From NCBI RefSeq assembly GCF_023699475.1, contig NZ_JALXFV010000003.1:353454-417453 (forward strand): a DNA stretch of 64,000 nucleotides, given 5' to 3'. The notes below the pieces were generated by a model, which was not told where the DNA came from, searched no databases, and saw nothing but the letters and a program-made list of their open reading frames with translations. Positions 1-35,863 of this stretch are shown one piece after another. The stretch's first letter is position 1. Every line of letters begins with the position of its first letter. Position numbers and translations under genes: made by a program. This DNA comes from Halomarina rubra (GTDB lineage Archaea; Halobacteriota; Halobacteria; Halobacteriales; Haloarculaceae).

Positions 1-1508
1 ATTGTACGGAAGCACTGAAATATTAATCAGTTCCCCTTTTGTGATGCTCGAATTACGACATCACTTAGGACCGGCTAACCCTCAGCTGACAAACATTGCT
101 GAGGAACCCTTGTCCGTTAGGCCGTCGAGATTCTCACCCGACTATCGCTGCTACTATGGCCAGGATTTTCGTCACCAATCGGTCCACACGAGTTCTCACC
201 CATGCTTCCACCCAATCGGAGCGCCAACCTACGGGAACACGCGATGAAGCGTGCCGCTAGGTCTCGGTAGTGGATTTGAGCCCCGATCATTTTCGACGCC
301 CCGAACCTCGGCCGGTAAGCTGTTACGCTTTTCTTAGAGGGTAGCTGCTTCTAAGCTCACCTCCCGGCTGTCTAGGGCTCGGGACAATCTTCAATCGCAC
401 TTAATCCACATTTTGGGACCTTAACCCAGCTCTGGGTTGTCTCCCTCACGGTGCACAAGCTTACCCCGCACACCGGGCTCCCTGCGTCTACGGCGTTCGT
501 AAGTTCGGAGTTTGACAGGGGTGTCGACGCCTCTCGGCGTCGATCGCCCCAATCAGTCGCTCTACCTCACGAACTACCTTAGCAGAGGTCATGCTTCGAC
601 ATGTTTCGGTTGGAACCAGCTGTTACCGGGTTCGATGGGCCTTTCACCCCTACACATAAGTCACGAGAGGGTATTGTAGGACACCAACTCTAGCAGGCCT
701 CCACATGGCTTTCGCCATGCTTCGCCTTGCTCATGTGTAGATCACCCGGATTCGGGTCGTGTCCGCCTGACTCCCCGCGCTTAAACACGGTGGCCCTGGC
801 AATGCTGCGGCCATATTGGTTTCCCTACGCCTTCCCCGATACTCGGGTTAGACTCGTCAAACAGACACACTCCCTGGCTCGTTTTTCAAAACGTACGACG
901 AGACACCGGCTCCGTAGACATTCTACTGTGGGGTCGCCCCCATGTCGTTCTGTCCACGGCCTTTTATGCCCCGTCGCTCCATCGCCACATGATTTCAGGC
1001 CTTATTTCAACCCCTTTCTCAGGGTACTTTTCAGCGTTCGCTCACGCTACTTGTCCGCTATCGGTCTCGAGTTGTATTTAGTCTTGGCAGTCGATGCCTG
1101 CCGTCTTCTCGAGGGATTTCCAACCCCCGATACTCTGGAACAAACCTGCAATCTCCCACTCACGATACGGGGCTGTCACCCTGTATCGCCCTCCGTTCCA
1201 GGAGAGTTCTCGTGAGTCGTTGATTGCGTATGGTAAGTCCGAACACCACATTGCCCGAAGGCTTCGGTTTGGACTGTGTCGTCTTCACTCGCCGTTACTA
1301 ACGACATCCCGTTCGGTTTCTTTTCCTGTCCTTACTGAGATGTTTCAGTTTTGGACGTTCCCCATTGCGCGAAGCAATTGTGAAGGGATTCCCATTAGGA
1401 GATCTGCAGTTCTTAGCCTCCGTGCGGCTCCCTGCAGCTTTTCGCAGCTTGGCACGTCCTTCGTCGGCACTCGAGCCGAGCCATCCACCACGTGGCACAG
1501 TAGCCACG
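1..1508 (-). rRNA. rrl: 23S ribosomal RNA, 5' half (partial)
   Basis: Read on the minus strand, the segment just below 1510 starts with the archaeal 23S 5' region (GGCTACTGTGCC, then CTCGGCTCGAGTGCCGACGA) and continues through conserved large-subunit rRNA sequence to the window edge. The 3' half lies outside, so only about 1.5 kb of a roughly 2.9-kb gene is present. The exact 5' end is an estimate (a few bases either way around 1508). The gene follows 16S and tRNA-Ala in the usual euryarchaeal order, so it is transcribed from the promoter array near 3560-3918 and possibly also from a spacer promoter. Confidence 0.95.
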
Positions 1509-1675
1509 AATAATTGAATGCTCTGGACCGCGGTAAACGGGTCCAGTGAGCGCCTGGATTGCACGTACACACGGTGTCATACACACGTCCGGAGACTAAG
1601 CGGACCTGCGTCAACCCTTCCCATCCTCGCTTGCACGAGATGGTGCATCTGTCTTCATCGGAACGAGCGCCGGAT

Positions 1676-1690
1676 TGCACTTAAGCAACC
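1676..1690 (-). promoter_or_regulatory. Possible spacer promoter for 23S
   Basis: In the tRNA-Ala to 23S spacer the minus strand reads GGTTGCTTAAGTGCAATCC, which carries the haloarchaeal TATA form TTAAGT. An internal promoter in this spacer has been reported for Halobacterium, and its position fits. This is a motif match only; no transcript end is visible from sequence. Confidence 0.35.
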
Positions 1691-1709
1691 CGGTTCCGTC
1701 CCGTGAATA

Positions 1710-1781
1710 TGGACCCACTGGGATTCGAACCCAGGGCATCCTCCTTGCAAAGGAGGCACTCTCCCACTGAGCTATGGGCCC
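1710..1781 (-). tRNA. tRNA-Ala (UGC) in the rRNA spacer
   Basis: The minus strand gives a complete 72-base cloverleaf. The acceptor strand GGGCCCA pairs with TGGGTCC, with discriminator A. The D arm is AGCTCAGTGGGAGAGTG, the anticodon loop CTTTGCAAG carries TGC, and the T arm contains GGTTCGAATCC. There is no intron and no encoded CCA. tRNA-Ala between 16S and 23S is the standard arrangement in euryarchaeal rRNA operons. Confidence 0.97.
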
Positions 1782-1786
1782 TACCT

Positions 1787-1821
1787 GTTAGCCCCGGTAG
1801 TTCTGAAGTGCTCGGTCGGCC
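1787..1821 (-). other. 3' arm of the 16S processing stem (bulge-helix-bulge)
   Basis: This segment of the precursor RNA pairs with 3453-3489 on the far side of 16S. Outer helix: GAACTAC and GGGGCTAAC pair with GTTAGCCCTGG and TAGTTC. Then comes a 3-base bulge (1804-1806), a 4-bp helix (1807-1810 with 3468-3471), a 3-base bulge on the other strand (3465-3467), and the inner helix CCGACCGAG with CTCGGTCGG. The 3-4-3 geometry is that of the archaeal bulge-helix-bulge cut by the tRNA splicing endonuclease. Confidence 0.85.
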
Positions 1822-1883
1822 ACTTCGTCGTCGACGTCCGCGCCAAAGGTGAGCCAGGCACGACGGCCTGGTCTCGATCTGTG

Positions 1884-3353
<1,470 letters not shown>

Positions 3354-3452
3354 GTTCCCCTCTAACGAGGGGGGTTGGCGGGAACACACTCAGAGAGTGT
3401 GTCCATATCCCATTTGCAGATTGCATGTGTGTATCGGACGTCGGCGACAGTC

Positions 3453-30226: not shown

Positions 30227-31909
30227 TCAGGAGTCGTCGAAGCGCGCCTGCACGAACGGTTGGGCGTCCTCGACCTCGCCTAGACGCGAGTCGGCCAGGA
30301 GGACGCTCTTGGTCTCGTCGAGGGGGACCGAGAGGCTCATCTCCTTGGTGCGGCCGTACCGCCCCTTCGAGACGACGACGGCGTTGACGATGCCGAGCAT
30401 GTCGAGTTCGGAGATGAGGTCGGTCACCCGCCGCTGGGTGAGCACGTCCATGTCGATCTCGTTGCAGAGGCGTTTGTAGATGTTGAACACCTCGCCCGTG
30501 TTGATGTTGTGGACGCCGTTCTCCTCCAGGAGGATGACCGCGTAGAGGACGAGTTTCGACTGCGTCGGGAGCGTCCGGACGACCTCGACGACGCGGTCCA
30601 ACTCGATCTTCTCCTGGGCGCGTCGAACGTGGGCCTCGTGGATGGTCTCGGTCCGGTCGCGTTCGGCGAGTTCACCCGCCGTCCGGAGTAGGTCGAGCGC
30701 ACGACGCGCGTCACCGTGTTCCTGGGCGGCGAACGCCGCACACAACGGGATGACGTCCTCCGAGAGCGTGTCCTCTTTGAACGCGATGTCCGAGCGATGC
30801 TGGAGGATGTCCCGGAGTTGGGTCGCGTCGTAGGGAGGAAAGACGATCTCCTCTTCGCCGAGACTCGACTTCACGCGCGGGTCGAGGAAGTCGGTGAACT
30901 TCAGGTCGTTCGAGATACCCATGATGGAGACCCGGGAGTTGTCGAGTTCGGAGTTCATCCGCGAGAGGTTGTACAGCGTGTCGTCACCGGACTTCTCGAC
31001 GAGTTTGTCGATCTCGTCGAGCATGATGACGACGACGCGTTCGCGGTAGTCGACGGCCTCGAAGAACGTCGAGTAGACGCGGTCGGTCGGCCACCCCGTC
31101 ATGGGGACGGGTTCGAACTCCTCGCGGTCGGCGTCGAGGTCCTCGATACGCTCGTCGAGCGCCTCTTCGCTGTCGAAGCCAGTTTCCTCGACGGTCGTCG
31201 TCTCCTCGTCGAGTGCCGCTCGTGTGTCTTCGAGTCGCTCCAGTTCCGACTCGATGTACGTGACGTTCTCGTCGATGAACTTGTTCGCGAGCTGTGCGAG
31301 CACGCGGTACTGCGTGTCGGTCACCTCGCAGTTGATGTACTGGACCTCGCAAGGGACCTCGTACTTCTGGGAGGTGGTCTCCAGTTCGTCGCTGACGAAC
31401 TTCGCGCTCGCGGTCTTGCCGGTCCCCGTCTTCCCGTAGATGAGGATGTTCGACGGCGTGTCGCCGCGCAACGCAGTGACGAGGATGGTCGCCATGTTGT
31501 TGATCTGCTCCTCGCGGTGCGGGAGTCGTCGTGGCGTGTACGACGGGCGGAGCACCTCCTTGTTCTCGAAGATGGGTTCGCCGCTGAGCAGGTCGTCGAA
31601 CAGTCCCGGCGACGCCTCGTCGGGCTCCGCCTCGGACGTGTCGTCGGCCACTCCGTCGGCTTCGACGCCGGCTTCGACGTCAGTTACGTCGGCGGCGACC
31701 GTCGTCGCCGACCCGTCGTCGACCGTCGGGTCGGACCCGTCGTCCGCCGTAAGTCCCTGTTCGTCGATCCCCTCGACGTCCTCGGTCACTTCGGACTCGT
31801 CGACCTCTTCGACGTCGTCCGCCTCACGTCGGCCGACGGTGTCGTCGTCTCTCGGCCGGTCGTCGCGTGCGGACGGGTCGGCGTCGGTGTTCGAATCTGT
31901 GTTCGTCAT
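30227..31909 (-). CDS. orc1: Origin recognition protein Orc1/Cdc6
   Basis: A 560-residue AAA+ initiator that binds origin boxes and loads MCM. Walker A is YGKTGTGKTASAK (GKTGTGKT at residues 159-166), Walker B is VVVIMLDEIDKL, and sensor 1 is in GISNDLKFTDF. Arginine-finger region: DPRVKSSLGEEEI. The C-terminal winged helix (LTQRRVTDLISELDMLGIV) contacts origin DNA. The first about 100 residues are an acidic, Asp/Thr/Glu-rich extension not usual in shorter archaeal Cdc6 proteins. It lies directly beside a full origin with ORB repeats and an AT-rich core, so this is very probably the initiator of the main chromosomal origin. ORB-type sequence also lies within its 5' leader, hinting at autoregulation. 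Confidence 0.96.
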   Translation of the reverse strand: MTNTDSNTDADPSARDDRPRDDDTVGRREADDVEEVDESEVTEDVEGIDEQGLTADDGSDPTVDDGSATTVAADVTDVEAGVEADGVADDTSEAEPDEASPGLFDDLLSGEPIFENKEVLRPSYTPRRLPHREEQINNMATILVTALRGDTPSNILIYGKTGTGKTASAKFVSDELETTSQKYEVPCEVQYINCEVTDTQYRVLAQLANKFIDENVTYIESELERLEDTRAALDEETTTVEETGFDSEEALDERIEDLDADREEFEPVPMTGWPTDRVYSTFFEAVDYRERVVVIMLDEIDKLVEKSGDDTLYNLSRMNSELDNSRVSIMGISNDLKFTDFLDPRVKSSLGEEEIVFPPYDATQLRDILQHRSDIAFKEDTLSEDVIPLCAAFAAQEHGDARRALDLLRTAGELAERDRTETIHEAHVRRAQEKIELDRVVEVVRTLPTQSKLVLYAVILLEENGVHNINTGEVFNIYKRLCNEIDMDVLTQRRVTDLISELDMLGIVNAVVVSKGRYGRTKEMSLSVPLDETKSVLLADSRLGEVEDAQPFVQARFDDS

Positions 31910-31914
31910 GTGTC

Positions 31915-31941
31915 CTCGACCCCTCCGTTTCGGGTGGAGTC
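31915..31941 (-). other. ORB element, orc1 leader
   Basis: On the minus strand ACTCCACCCGAAACGGAGGG followed by GTCGA: the TCCAC, GAAAC and G-run parts of an origin-recognition box. It lies only about 6 bases upstream of the orc1 start codon, so Orc1 binding here could limit its own synthesis. Confidence 0.7.
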
Positions 31942-32490
31942 AGCCCCACGCACCCGGCGAGACGGTCGTTGTTCCCCCGTAGAAGACCGCTTCTCGGAAT
32001 CGTCCCGCAGGAGTGCGTCCAGTTGATGCAGAAGAACACGAAGTCGAGACATCAATTAAACATTGTGGTCTCGGCGAACGGTCAGTGTGTCGGGACGCTC
32101 TCACCCACACGCTCGGCCGTGCGGTCTCGGAACCGCACCGTGGGAGCGACACCGGTCGTCACCGAGAGACGACGGTGCTCGAGCGGTAGACCCACGCGGC
32201 ACCCACTCGGCACGGGCCGTGTTTCCGAGTGCAGCGAGAGTGCACGGAAGCACCCCTCCTCGTCGTGGGGTGTCGTCCGCCGGTCAGGACGAGTCGGTGG
32301 ACCCCGTCCCTTCTCCTCCAACCGTCGAAGGAGACGTCGAGCGTGGGGTGAGTTCCGGTGCGGACGGGAAGGGGAGGTGGGGGTCGGATATCACCGTTCA
32401 GCGGGGAGTCGTCGACGGGGTCGTGAGAACCGCTAGCTAGCCACCTACGGACGCTCTCTCGGCAGTGCGTGTCGTTCACTCGCACCACCT

Positions 32491-32546
32491 GACCCCCCCA
32501 CCCCCTCGTTTCGGGTGGAAACGCCAAAAGGCGGGGTGGGGGGTGT
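32491..32546 (-). other. ORB element with flanking G/C-rich inverted repeat
   Basis: The box (32495-32523, minus strand) reads TTTCCACCCGAAACGAGGGG then GTGGGGGGG. It is enclosed by an inverted repeat: ACCCCCCCACCCC (32491-32504) and GGGGTGGGGGGT (32534-32545). The core itself contains the palindrome CGTTTC-gggtg-GAAACG. It faces away from the AT-rich core on its right. Confidence 0.8.
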
Positions 32547-32568
32547 GACGAGTCGCGAGCCTGGCTAG

Positions 32569-32697
32569 TCACAGAAACATTCATATACACGTCCAGCATA
32601 CCAAACCCGTACTAGAGACAACTGGTCTAATTTAGTTTATTTCTAGTGCTGTGTGTTGCTAGAATCAATTCTGCACGGTTTCTTTCTAGTTCTAGAA
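32569..32697. other. AT-rich core, likely DNA unwinding element
   Basis: The most AT-rich stretch of the origin, lying between two inverted ORB elements. Segments such as CTAATTTAGTTTATTTCTAG and AATCAATTC stand out in a genome of roughly two-thirds G+C. This is where strand opening would be expected. Six of the thirteen CTAG sites lie in or at the edge of it. Confidence 0.75.
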
Positions 32698-32755
32698 ACG
32701 AGTTCGGTCGTTCGGCCCGAGTTCGACCCGTCCCCACCCCGGTGGGTGGTGCCCG

Positions 32756-32782
32756 CTCCACACGAAACGAAGGGGTGGGGGT
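32756..32782 (+). other. ORB element, right side
   Basis: CTCCACACGAAACGAAGGGG followed by TGGGGG on the plus strand. It is the inverted partner of the box at 32495-32523 and has the same TCCAC/GAAAC/G-run layout. The phased CTAG array begins 13 bases after it. Confidence 0.8.
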
Positions 32783-32794
32783 TTCGGAGGGTGC

Positions 32795-32841
32795 CTAGAA
32801 CAGCTCTAGGGGTGTACTAGTAGCCCTCTAGCACCCTCTAG
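32795..32841. repeat. Phased array of five CTAG sites
   Basis: CTAG occurs at 32795, 32806, 32817, 32828 and 32838, so spacings are 11, 11, 11 and 10 bases, about one helical turn each. All five sites thus lie on one face of the DNA. The sequence between them is not repeated (the last two share CCCTCTAG), so the array is not a simple tandem duplication. CTAG is strongly avoided in haloarchaeal genomes and is a methylation target of the conserved Zim methyltransferase. Confidence 0.85.
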
Positions 32842-33301
32842 TATCGCGGATGCCCTCACACCACGACGGCACCACTTCGTGTCGAACCGACTCGGCTGAG
32901 GTGTGAGGCTGCGTCGCCGTCACGCTCACTACCGACTGTCGACTCGCGCCCCACCAGCCACGGTGGCGACGAGTCTCGAGGCGAGGACTGTCGGACCCGG
33001 CCCCCGTCGCTTCCGGTGGACCGACCGAGGTCGGTCACATCGAACACGGTCGCCTCGACTCGACGGGTCGAACGCGTCCGGTCCGGACTCGGCGAACCGA
33101 ACTCCGTCGGTTCGGGCGTCTCGCGCGCGTGTACGGAATCGCACTCTCGATACGCGTGTCGGGAGGCCGACCTCGACACGCTCGGTCGGACGTCTCCGCA
33201 ATATTGTCAGAAAATGTATGTATGTCTGACGCAGTGTTAAGTGAGTCGGGTCGGCTATGGCAGATAGACCCGCCCCTCGGGGCCGGGGAGGATACGCCAG
33301 G

Positions 33302-33946
33302 ATGGGACTGTTAACTGAACTCAGATCGAGTATTTCGCGCGTGACGTCGAAGCTGTTCGCGCCCGATCAGGGACCGAAGCGAATCGGTATCTACGGGCCG
33401 CCGAACGCCGGCAAGACGACGCTCGCGAACCGCATCGCCCGCGACTGGACCGGTGACGCCATCGGCCCGGAGAGCCACGTGCCTCACGAGACACGTCGTG
33501 CTCGTCGCAAGGAGAACGTCGAGATCGAACGCAACGGGAAGAGCGTCACCATCGACATCGTCGACACGCCCGGCGTGACGACGAAGGTCGACTACAAGGA
33601 GTTCCTCGAACACGACATCGAGAAGGAAGACGCCGTGCGTCGGTCCCGAGAGGCGACCGAGGGCGTCGCCGAGGCGATGCACTGGCTTCGCGAGGACGTC
33701 GACGGCGTCATCTACGTCCTCGACAGCGCGGCCGACCCGTTCACGCAGGTGAACACGATGCTCATCGGCATCATCGAGTCGAAGGACCTCCCCGTGCTCA
33801 TCTTCGCGAACAAGACCGACCTCGAGGAGTCGAGCGTCCAGCAGATCGCCAACGCGTTCCCACAGCACGAGACCGTCCCGCTGTCGGCGCTCGAAGGCGA
33901 CAACATGGACGAAGTGTACGACAAGATCGCGGAGTACTTCGGATAA
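33302..33946 (+). CDS. arvA: Small GTPase ArvA (formerly OapA)
   Basis: A 214-residue Era/Ras-like GTPase. The P-loop is GPPNAGKT (residues 32-39), G3 is VDTPG, and G4 is NKTD, with the characteristic insert VPHETRRARRKENVEIERNG. This family was named for its position beside the origin (origin-associated protein) and has been renamed ArvA after it was shown to drive extracellular vesicle formation in haloarchaea. The start at 33302 opens the conserved MGLLTELRSSISRVTSKLF; an earlier ATG at 33257 adds 15 unconserved residues. The stop overlaps arvB by one base. Promoter candidates lie at 33200-33241. Confidence 0.92.
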   Translation: MGLLTELRSSISRVTSKLFAPDQGPKRIGIYGPPNAGKTTLANRIARDWTGDAIGPESHVPHETRRARRKENVEIERNGKSVTIDIVDTPGVTTKVDYKEFLEHDIEKEDAVRRSREATEGVAEAMHWLREDVDGVIYVLDSAADPFTQVNTMLIGIIESKDLPVLIFANKTDLEESSVQQIANAFPQHETVPLSALEGDNMDEVYDKIAEYFG

Positions 33947-34350
33947 TGCCTGGCATGCAACCACCCAACGGCGCGCCCGAGACCCCCGACGGCGTCCAGA
34001 TCGACCTCATCAGTGCCGGTCGAATGTCGAACCTCCGGACGATGGAGAAGATCCGGACCATCCTCGACAGCGTCCACGACGGCAACATCGTCATCCTCGA
34101 AGACGGCCTCTCGCCCGACGAGGAGTCGAAACTCATCGAGGTGACGATGAGCGAGATCAGCCCCGACGGGTTCACCGGCATCGAGATCGAGACCTACCCC
34201 AAACCCTCGAACGACGGCGGCCTGTTCAACCGCCTGATGGGCAAGGGGTCGGACAACGACAACAAGCTGACCGTCATCGGCCCCGCCAACCGCATCGAGA
34301 CCCTCCACAAGGACGAGAACCTCATCAGCGCGCTGGTCACCCGGAGGTAA
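33946..34350 (+). CDS. arvB: ArvB (DUF2073 protein, formerly OapB)
   Basis: A 134-residue DUF2073 protein encoded between the ArvA GTPase and ArvC. Conserved features are IDLISAGRMSNLRTMEKIR, the segment NIVILEDGLSPDEESKLIE, and IGIEIETYP-like GFTGIEIETYPKP. No catalytic motif is evident. The start codon shares a base with the arvA stop (TAATG), and a ribosome-binding site for the next gene overlaps its end. It is inferred to be a partner or regulator of ArvA in vesicle formation; the biochemical role is not known from sequence. Confidence 0.9.
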   Translation: MPGMQPPNGAPETPDGVQIDLISAGRMSNLRTMEKIRTILDSVHDGNIVILEDGLSPDEESKLIEVTMSEISPDGFTGIEIETYPKPSNDGGLFNRLMGKGSDNDNKLTVIGPANRIETLHKDENLISALVTRR

Positions 34351-34355
34351 CCCCG

Positions 34356-35507
34356 GTGCCACACCAGTGTACCGCCTGCGGGCACACGTTCGAGGACGGC
34401 TCGAAGGAGATGCTGTCGGGCTGTCCGGGCTGTGGCGGCACGACGTTCCAGTTCCGCCCGAGCGGTGCGGCCGACGGGACGTCGACCGACGCGCCGGACG
34501 ACTCCGACGCGACCCCGCCAGAACGTGAGTCCGGCGGCGTCGCCGAACGCATGGGCCGCACCGCCACCGCGATGCGCGACTGGATGCACCGCGACGACGC
34601 TCCCGACAGGTCCGACACTGCCGGCGCTCCCGACACTGCCGAGACCCCCGACTCCACCGACGTCCCCGATACCACCGACGTCGAGGACGCGACCGGTTCC
34701 ACTCGAACCGACGCCGGTGACGCGGACACCGGGGTCGAAACCGGGACCGCGAGCGTCGACGAGCGGACCACTGGTGAACCGACGACCGACGAGACGCGAC
34801 CAGCAGACGCGACACGACCAGCGGACGAGAACCGTTCTCCGGACGACACACGGTCACCCGCCACCTCCGAATCGGACGACGCGGCCGCCCCAGACGCGGT
34901 CGCATCCGGCGAAGACACGGACGACGGTCTGGCCGCGTGGCCCGACCCGCCGGACGTGAGCCACGTTCGGGAGAAAGACCAGCGCGTCCACCGTCGCCGG
35001 CGACGCGCTGGGCGGTGGGGTACGGAGACCGAACAGGCGACCGAGACGGACCAGACGACTCAGACCGACCGACCGACCGAGACCGAACGGGTGGCCGAGA
35101 CGGTCGACCGGCCGACCGACGAGCCTCGCGACGACACCCCTCGGCCGAACGAGGACGGTCTCATCGTCGCCGACGAGGAATCCCTCGACGGCTCGACGGA
35201 AGACACCGCCCAGGCGAGCGCGCGGAGCGAGATGGCGCGCCCCGACGAACTCCCGCCGCGGGAGTCCGAAGCCCCCAGTTCGGGTCGCGTCGTCAGCGAA
35301 CCGAGCGGGGAGAAACCCGACATGGCCGAACTCCGCGAGGAGCTCAACGAGCAGTTCGAGTCGATCAAGATCGTCGAACCCGGTCAGTACGAACTCAACC
35401 TGATGGAGCTGTACGACCGCCAGGAGTACATCATCTCGCTCCGGGAGAACGGTCGGTACGTCATCCAGATGCCCGAAGACTGGCTCGGCGACCGCGACGT
35501 ACCGTAG
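34356..35507 (+). CDS. arvC: ArvC (OapC-type zinc-ribbon protein)
   Basis: A 383-residue protein with an N-terminal C4 zinc ribbon (HQCTACGHTF, SGCPGCGGTTFQF), a very long disordered linker of about 270 residues rich in Asp, Thr, Glu and Pro, and a compact C-terminal domain (ELREELNEQFESIKIVEPGQ; YELNLMELYDRQEYIISLRE) that defines the OapC/ArvC family. The start is GTG at 34356, placed by GGAGGT 6 bases upstream. It is the third gene of the arvABC unit. The linker has runs such as TRPADATRPADENR and ETDQTTQTDRPTETE, which suggest expansion by slippage. Confidence 0.9.
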   Translation: MPHQCTACGHTFEDGSKEMLSGCPGCGGTTFQFRPSGAADGTSTDAPDDSDATPPERESGGVAERMGRTATAMRDWMHRDDAPDRSDTAGAPDTAETPDSTDVPDTTDVEDATGSTRTDAGDADTGVETGTASVDERTTGEPTTDETRPADATRPADENRSPDDTRSPATSESDDAAAPDAVASGEDTDDGLAAWPDPPDVSHVREKDQRVHRRRRRAGRWGTETEQATETDQTTQTDRPTETERVAETVDRPTDEPRDDTPRPNEDGLIVADEESLDGSTEDTAQASARSEMARPDELPPRESEAPSSGRVVSEPSGEKPDMAELREELNEQFESIKIVEPGQYELNLMELYDRQEYIISLRENGRYVIQMPEDWLGDRDVP

Positions 35508-35863
35508 CCGCGGTCCCTTCGGGTGTCGTAGTCGCGACTCGTTCGGGTCCGTTTCCGGACGCCCGCCGTGTTCACGCTCCCGGTCGCCGTCGTACGGTTC
35601 TCCACCGGAAACGAGGGGGTCGCCACGTCGTCGACCGTACTGCTGTCGACTGTCGGTGCTTACGAGTTGCTATCGCCGACGACGGAGTCAGCCGAACCGT
35701 CGTGCGTCCGTGACCGTCGCCCAGGAGCGCCGCGAGGGGGCTCGGTCGTCACGTCGCGGACGGCGTCGGTCGCGTCGTCCCGCGAGGGTCGCCCCGCTAC
35801 GATGGACACGGTCGTCGGGACGAACCCGGCAGGACTTAAACGGTCGCCCGCGAAGCGAGTTCC
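35508..35863. other. Intergenic region with outlying ORB and leaderless promoter
   Basis: No gene seen in the first 350 bases. An ORB-type box, TCTCCACCGGAAACGAGGGG plus GT, lies at 35600-35622 on the plus strand, the same orientation as the right-side origin box 2.8 kb away. At the right end, CTTAAA (35835-35840) lies 26 bases before the ATG at 35864 and is the promoter of the small membrane protein gene. Confidence 0.65.

What the first reader, a model, noticed from the sequence alone, without database searches (positions are those of the whole stretch)
32433..32841. Thirteen CTAG sites in 409 bases of the origin against near absence elsewhere
Counted by eye: 32433, 32437, 32565, 32612, 32643, 32659, 32686, 32692 and the five phased ones. 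Outside rRNA I noticed only about nine others in roughly 60 kb. That is an enrichment of around two orders of magnitude. Part of the region is AT-rich, which helps a little, but the densest part (32795-32841) is not. Selection for these sites in the origin is the natural reading.
Basis: partly seen in the sequence, partly recalled or inferred. Interest (0 to 1): 0.75.

Follow-up and report, generated by a model that had tools for sequence, protein, structure and literature searches.

The report
Methylation-site cluster at a haloarchaeal origin
The chromosome start-of-copying site of this salt-loving archaeon (genus Halomarina) is packed with the four-letter DNA word CTAG, which its own DNA-marking enzyme is expected to tag and which is scarce elsewhere; clusters like this were already known in such archaea, but their position between the two initiator boxes and their spacing by turns of the DNA helix hint at a docking surface that controls when copying starts.

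Summary
Observation confirmed: 13 CTAG in 32433-32841 against 9 in the other 59,253 bases outside rRNA and origin (209-fold; next of 24 same-composition tetramers 10-fold). All six CTAG triplets (gaps up to 30) of the 4.07-Mb genome lie here. It is oriC1: orc1/cdc6, two inverted ORBs (237 nt apart) round an AT-rich core, then oapABC.

Not new in kind. Blow 2016 (PMC4752239) reported CTAG clusters at haloarchaeal orc1/cdc6 correlating with an orphan CTAG methylase. This genome has that methylase (50% identical to a plasmid methylase beside an MjaI-type nuclease).

What I add: CTAGs concentrate between the ORBs (479 of 660 sites, 117 origins). Of methylase-positive origins 109 of 117 have at least one there (CTAG observed/expected 3.24); of negative ones 6 of 24 (0.43). 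In one family the sites stand 2-2-1-3 helical turns apart in diverged spacer; Haloarculaceae show weaker 10.5-bp phasing. My searches found no report of this.

Likely function: methylation-dependent control of initiation, with a reader or Orc1 complex sensing helical face. No reader identified, nothing tested at the bench; few independent methylase losses; methylase-positive Halorubrum origins lack the sites.

The parts
30227..31909 (-). orc1/cdc6 initiator gene, divergent from the origin
   Evidence: Pfam Cdc6_C 4.4e-32, Cdc6_lid, AAA
31910..33256 (.). oriC1 intergenic region, 13 CTAG
   Evidence: between divergent orc1/cdc6 and oapA
31920..31940 (-). third ORB-like site next to the orc1 start
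   Evidence: 3 mismatches to the pattern taken from this origin's ORBs
32433..32440 (.). CTAGCTAG, two adjoining sites outside the left ORB
32501..32521 (-). left ORB; G-string on its outer side
   Evidence: 0 mismatches; arm of 38-nt inverted repeat, 82%
32522..32754 (.). inter-ORB segment with 6 CTAG (32565, 32612, 32643, 32659, 32686, 32692); 32555-32700 is AT-rich (GC 0.42), the presumed unwinding element
32683..32695 (+). TTTCTAGTTCTAG, two CTAG 6 bp apart; both CTAGs and their spacing kept in 5 of 5 Halomarina origins
   Evidence: alignments
32755..32775 (+). right ORB, G-string on its outer side
   Evidence: 2 mismatches; inverted repeat partner
32795..32841 (.). helically phased array of 5 CTAG (spacings 11, 11, 11, 10), GC 0.53, spacers not repeated
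   Evidence: rearranged counterpart (21, 10, 10, 9) only in G158 (Halomarina oriensis)
33257..33946 (+). oapA-like GTPase gene
   Evidence: MMR_HSR1 1.4e-13; name oapA from position beside oapB/oapC
33946..34350 (+). oapB, origin-associated protein
   Evidence: Pfam OapB 6.9e-42
34356..35507 (+). oapC, origin-associated protein
   Evidence: Pfam OapC 3.2e-25

Best explanation
The CTAGs are selected target sites, inside and beside oriC1, of the conserved orphan m4C methylase for CTAG (Zim/HVO_0794 type). Shown here: the cluster, its place between inverted ORBs, its tie to the methylase gene across haloarchaea, conservation of CTAG in register inside diverged sequence, and helical spacing (strong in one family, moderate in Haloarculaceae). 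Inferred: Zim methylates these sites; after fork passage they are hemimethylated for a time; that state, read by a protein or Orc1 complex that sees CTAGs on one or both faces of the helix, or through a change in how the DNA bends or melts, delays or licenses re-initiation. The 11-bp array outside the right ORB would be an extra docking surface particular to this Halomarina lineage. This works like Dam/SeqA at E. coli oriC but shares no part tested here.
For:: cluster and near uniqueness in this genome; methylase gene, 50% identical over 323 aa to the pFZ1 methylase that lies beside an MjaI-family nuclease; no MjaI-family nuclease in this genome; neighbours are TFIIB-like and DHquinase genes, so an orphan. 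CTAG 3.70/kb in 87 methylase-positive origins against 0.27/kb in flanks, 0.58/kb in 24 negative origins; between ORBs 109 of 117 positive and 6 of 24 negative have a site (p 5.8e-12); within family f4 21 of 27 against 5 of 22 (p 1.7e-4); other AT-rich palindromes do not separate the groups this way; 14.5/kb between ORBs against 1.0-3.0/kb around them. CTAG columns conserved in diverged spacers. Phasing. Prior: PMC4752239.
Against: No reader protein known or found. Methylation of these very sites was not observed. Deleting the CTAG methylase in Haloferax volcanii gave no growth defect, and only oriC2 is CTAG-rich there (PMC5867850). The two methylase-positive Halorubrum origins have no CTAG between the ORBs. 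Several other methylase-positive Haloferacaceae and Halorussus origins have 0-3. With phylogeny taken into account only 5 well-supported independent contrasts remain: for two or more sites about 3 agree, 0 oppose, 2 tie (means over 200 pairings), not significant. In Haloarculaceae phasing is not significant when only inter-ORB sites and distances of 7-60 bp are taken (181 of 1000 jitters reach it), and one-per-genus mean z values between ORBs range from -0.3 to 1.7.
Confidence: 0.68

Rival explanations
1. CTAG is the core of a binding site for a protein that does not care about methylation (Orc1 paralogue, histone or other chromatin protein, OapB partner); its link to the methylase is shared ancestry.
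For: Sites are helically phased and kept in register, as binding sites would be; few independent methylase losses.
Against: No conserved letters beyond CTAG apart from a mild A/T preference next to it; the palindrome is exactly the methylase target; CTAG falls below expectation where the methylase is absent (O/E 0.43).
Confidence: 0.17
2. Structural role: CTAG has a flexible central TA step, and phased copies make the unwinding element bend or melt.
For: Sites lie in the AT-rich inter-ORB core and show 5.25/10.5-bp spacing.
Against: Other TA-containing palindromic tetramers are not enriched this way over expectation, none of the 82 control 4-mers reaches CTAG's phasing score, and methylase-negative origins of like AT content do without CTAG.
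Confidence: 0.08
3. Only relaxed avoidance: CTAG is purged from coding DNA, and the long non-coding AT-rich origin simply escapes.
For: CTAG is under-represented in flanks (O/E 0.22); AT content helps.
Against: O/E well above 1 (3.24 between ORBs); 13 against at most 8 in 2000 shuffles; negative origins of like length and composition lack the sites; columns conserved.
Confidence: 0.04
4. Restriction or selfish-element explanation: the sites mark the replicon as self against a CTAG-cutting nuclease.
For: A relative of the methylase on pFZ1 sits beside an MjaI-family nuclease.
Against: No MjaI-family nuclease in this genome; more cutting sites in the origin would be a liability, not a mark.
Confidence: 0.03

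Closest known systems
CTAG clusters at haloarchaeal orc1/cdc6 origins with the conserved orphan m4C methylase (Blow et al. 2016, PMC4752239; passages read)
   Same: Same motif, same place (upstream of orc1/cdc6), same methylase family, correlation with methylase presence; regulation of replication proposed there.
   Different: They report density over 50 kb. In the passages I read there is no ORB-relative position, helical phasing or register conservation. In this genome the cluster is strong at one origin only, not at the other orc1 paralogues looked at by eye.
Haloferax volcanii HVO_0794 / C(m4)TAG (Ouellette et al. 2018, PMC5867850; passages read)
   Same: Orphan CTAG methylase and CTAG density at an origin.
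   Different: There only oriC2 is rich, GATC is enriched as well, and deletion has no growth defect; here GATC is absent from the origin.
E. coli Dam/GATC/SeqA at oriC (PMC5145175; passages read)
   Same: Clustered palindromic methylation sites of an orphan methylase in the origin; in vitro SeqA wants sites 2-3 helical turns apart on one face.
   Different: Other base, other methyl group, no SeqA relative shown; that paper states E. coli oriC GATCs are not spaced by integral turns, whereas the CTAGs here are in some lineages.
Haloarcula hispanica oriC1 (PMC3936714; passages read)
   Different: In the passages I read CTAG or methylation of the core was not treated.

Membership tests
Haloarchaeal oriC1 | orc1/cdc6 gene adjacent | tested here: met
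Haloarchaeal oriC1 | two inverted ORBs with G-strings flanking an AT-rich stretch | tested here: met
Haloarchaeal oriC1 | autonomous replication / marker-frequency peak | not testable with these tools
   needs experiment
CTAG-clustered origin with orphan CTAG methylase (Blow 2016 type) | CTAG density peak upstream of orc1/cdc6 | tested here: met
CTAG-clustered origin with orphan CTAG methylase (Blow 2016 type) | orphan CTAG methylase gene in the genome | tested here: met
   specificity inferred from 50% identity to the pFZ1 methylase (M.MthZI by recall and by the 1992 reference listed in PMC6471742)
CTAG-clustered origin with orphan CTAG methylase (Blow 2016 type) | origin CTAGs methylated in vivo | not testable with these tools
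   no methylome held
SeqA-type sequestration system | reader that binds hemimethylated sites | not tested
   no candidate searched for
SeqA-type sequestration system | sites spaced by whole helical turns | tested here: inconclusive
   met strongly in family f3 and in this window's array (11, 11, 11, 10); moderate in Haloarculaceae (z 4.8; mean z -0.3 to 3.1, by range and region; not significant); not detectable elsewhere

The most novel reading that the evidence does not exclude
Haloarchaeal oriC1 carries an archaeal counterpart of Dam/SeqA control that arose on its own: Zim-methylated CTAGs laid out at whole and half helical turns between the ORBs form the docking face of an unknown hemimethylation reader (or of an Orc1 assembly) that blocks re-initiation; selection acts on CTAG and on phase, not on the letters between.
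Probability: 0.3. Interest if true: 0.88.

Novelty: new variant of a known kind. Interest (0 to 1): 0.58.

Why it matters
The role of the conserved haloarchaeal CTAG methylase is stated as an open question in PMC6471742 (2019; passages read). Showing that its sites sit between the initiator boxes, disappear where the enzyme is absent, and keep helical phase while the spacers diverge turns a density correlation into a concrete, testable model of methylation-controlled replication initiation in archaea, and points to Haloarcula rather than Haloferax as the organism in which to test it.

Tried and rejected
GATC as a replacement in methylase-negative origins: not enriched (O/E 0.99; no stand-out between ORBs). 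CTAG as part of a longer repeat: spacers are not repeats, no longer motif. ORB-to-CTAG phase: seen in f3 only (Rayleigh p about 1e-10 on shared-ancestry data), not in f1 (p 0.15 and 0.64) nor the rest. CTAG clusters at the other orc1 paralogues of this genome: weak at best, judged by eye on loci L010-L029, not tested. First phasing test: jitter null 0 of 2000, but CTAG ranked only 7th of 145 4-mers under that noisier scoring; better-powered tests followed. In one search the small f4 set was not significant (151 of 500). Whole-class triplet counts were not a clean origin marker. The phylogenetic pairs test points the right way but is too small.

Rows dropped: one search kept 122 of 161 loci (160 fetched plus the window); 39 had no divergent orc1/cdc6 within 6 kb, many cut at contig ends, many Halorubrum. 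One search kept 35 of 40. One search dropped 5 of 157 without an ORB pair, all methylase-positive. Of the 80 named loci, 63 gave an origin; 12 of these duplicated fetched genomes, the rest were read for spacing but not counted in any statistic. Genomes for fetching were chosen by me (best OapB scores, the methylase-negative ones I could place, spread over genera), not at random: 160 of 391 and then 40 more of family f1. 11 genomes with intermediate methylase scores were kept apart. Methylase presence is a sequence call, activity untested.

Full report
OBSERVATION. Outside rRNA (1-3400) and the orc1-oapA intergenic region the window has 9 CTAG in 59,253 bases. The 409-bp stretch has 31.8/kb against 0.15/kb, 209-fold; of the 24 tetramers built from one A, C, G and T the next is GCTA (10-fold), and CATG, GATC and TCGA give 0, 0 and 0.2-fold. 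Dinucleotide shuffles of the stretch itself average 2.4 with a maximum of 8 in 2000. In the whole 4,068,489-base assembly there are 35 CTAG pairs with gaps up to 30, 9 of them here, and 6 triplets, all here. The only triplets spaced 9-12 bp are those of the array 32795-32841.

WHAT IT IS. The region lies between a divergent orc1/cdc6 gene (30227-31909, minus) and oapA-oapB-oapC. Two inverted ORBs with halophile G-strings stand at 32501-32521 and 32755-32775, arms of a 38-nt inverted repeat 237 nt apart, round a core of which 32555-32700 has GC 0.42. This matches the described anatomy of haloarchaeal oriC1 (PMC3936714 and PMC3528665, passages read). Of the 13 sites two lie outside the left ORB, six between the ORBs and five, at 11, 11, 11 and 10 bp, just outside the right ORB. 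The window's genus is that of Halomarina oriensis: genome G158, called same genus, has the same origin as the named locus L190.

THE ENZYME. The genome encodes an N4/N6-type DNA methylase (L007:1438-2517, G000 contig 11) that is 50% identical over 323 aa to the methylase of plasmid pFZ1, which sits beside an MjaI-family nuclease. That the pFZ1 enzyme is M.MthZI, specific for CTAG, I take from recall and from the 1992 reference listed in PMC6471742. Here its neighbours are a TFIIB-like gene and a 3-dehydroquinase gene, and no MjaI-family nuclease is found in the genome. It is an orphan.

PRIOR KNOWLEDGE. Blow et al. 2016 (PMC4752239, passages read) report CTAG motif clusters upstream of orc1/cdc6 in haloarchaea, correlating with an orphan methylase, and propose a role in replication (the text writes CATG, the figure legend CTAG). 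Ouellette et al. 2018 (PMC5867850, passages read) find higher density only near oriC2 in Haloferax volcanii, no growth defect on deletion, and doubt the role. Fullmer et al. 2019 (PMC6471742, passages read) leave the function open. The core of this finding is therefore known.

COMPARATIVE TEST. OapB is found in 391 of 391 class genomes. The methylase is found at E below 1e-3 in 352 of 391, with a clear gap between strong and weak matches apart from 11 intermediate genomes. I fetched 160 and then 40 oapB regions. In 87 methylase-positive origins CTAG runs at 3.70/kb against a mean of 0.27/kb in flanks; in 24 negative origins 0.58 against 0.21; in 11 with intermediate scores 2.41 against 0.13. 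CTAG is the most origin-enriched of 16 palindromic tetramers in positives (13.5-fold over flanks, O/E 1.73) and is below expectation in negatives (O/E 0.36), while AT-rich palindromes are enriched in both. Between the ORBs: 478 CTAG in 117 positive segments (O/E 3.24; 109 of 117 have at least one) against 6 in 24 negative segments (O/E 0.43; 6 of 24) (Fisher p 5.8e-12). Within family f4 alone: 21 of 27 against 5 of 22, p 1.7e-4. Against this: both methylase-positive Halorubrum origins with an ORB pair have none, other f4 and f6 positives have few, and on a tree only 5 well-supported independent contrasts remain; for two or more sites about 3 agree, 0 oppose, 2 tie, which cannot reach significance.

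POSITION. In 117 positive origins with an ORB pair 479 of 660 CTAG lie from ORB to ORB (14.5/kb), 2.9-3.0/kb in the 100 bp on either side and 1.0-1.3/kb beyond. CTAG therefore belongs to the presumed unwinding core, and the array of this window is an addition to that rule.

PHASING. CTAG pair distances in 122 positive origins of 48 genera peak at 10, 19-22, 31-32 and 40-42 bp; the period scan peaks at 10.5 and no jitter of 2000 reaches the observed value. Over all families CTAG scores z 8.7 against at most 3.7 for 82 other 4-mers. Much of this comes from family f3, where sites stand 20-22, 20-22, 10 and 31 bp apart (2, 2, 1 and 3 turns) in most of 10 origins while the spacers diverge: CTAG columns are 0.87 conserved, others 0.60. 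These genera share ancestry, so this is one arrangement held by selection rather than many events. In f1 (Haloarculaceae by the names of matching contigs) de-duplicated neighbour gaps of 7-50 bp give z 4.8 at 10.5 (95% of null maxima below 2.9), and CTAG ranks first of 54 4-mers. With gaps of 4-6 bp included the best period is 5.25, i.e. both faces. Less favourable results: one origin per genus in f1 gives mean z 1.2-3.1 over the whole region and -0.3 to 1.7 between ORBs; between ORBs with distances 7-60 bp the f1 result is not significant (181 of 1000); f4 is not significant (151 of 500); the first test ranked CTAG 7th of 145. I hold phasing as strong in f3, moderate in f1, undetected elsewhere.

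TURNOVER. Among five Halomarina origins the ORBs and the two CTAGs of TTTCTAGTTCTAG are kept. The array right of the right ORB is present only in this genome (11, 11, 11, 10) and in G158 (21, 10, 10, 9), with different spacers. That the array changed in sequence yet stayed near helical spacing fits selection on phase, but it is a single comparison.

MECHANISM. Most likely a methylation-dependent control of oriC1, with a reader or Orc1 assembly sensitive to helical face. Shown: sites, place, link to the enzyme, register. SeqA in vitro prefers sites two to three turns apart, although E. coli oriC itself is not so spaced (PMC5145175, passages read); the likeness is functional, and no shared part was tested.

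LITERATURE LIMITS. Searches for CTAG with origin, methyltransferase, helical and replication terms listed no paper whose title or abstract concerns helical phasing or ORB-relative placement of origin CTAGs. Only an open-licence PMC library was searched, only passages were read, and supplements were not readable.

Noticed in passing
L007:1411-1414: A CTAG lies 27 nt upstream of the start codon of the CTAG methylase gene itself, where a promoter element could be; possible self-regulation.
   Followed up: no
window 35599-35619: An ORB-like sequence (2 mismatches) 92 nt beyond oapC, and one at 31920-31940 beside the orc1 start: possible extra Orc1 binding or titration sites.
   Followed up: no
L045-L047, L050, L051, L056-L058, L061, L116-L120, L125, L126 (Halorubrum, g19): In many Halorubrum genomes no divergent orc1/cdc6 lies within the fetched stretch upstream of oapA (about 9 kb away in L053 and L065), so the oriC1-oapABC neighbourhood is broken or differs in this genus.
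   Followed up: partly
genomes G063 G095 G122 G157 G258 G275 G325 G328 G342 G351 G384: Eleven Haloferacaceae genomes carry a clearly diverged relative of the CTAG methylase (E 1e-70 to 1e-95); their inter-ORB segments hold 1-3 CTAG each. Possibly a second lineage of the enzyme.
   Followed up: partly
control column: GATC triplets vary from 5 to about 8000 per genome across the class and are very low in Halomarina (22 in this genome): strong lineage-specific GATC avoidance.
   Followed up: no
L273: A genus g8 origin (G257) has four CTAG at 8-bp spacing and no recognisable ORB pair; an off-helix exception.
   Followed up: no
G175 contig 1 589249-589450: A 33-bp tandem repeat with CTAG in every unit, away from the origin that I placed in that genome.
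   Followed up: no
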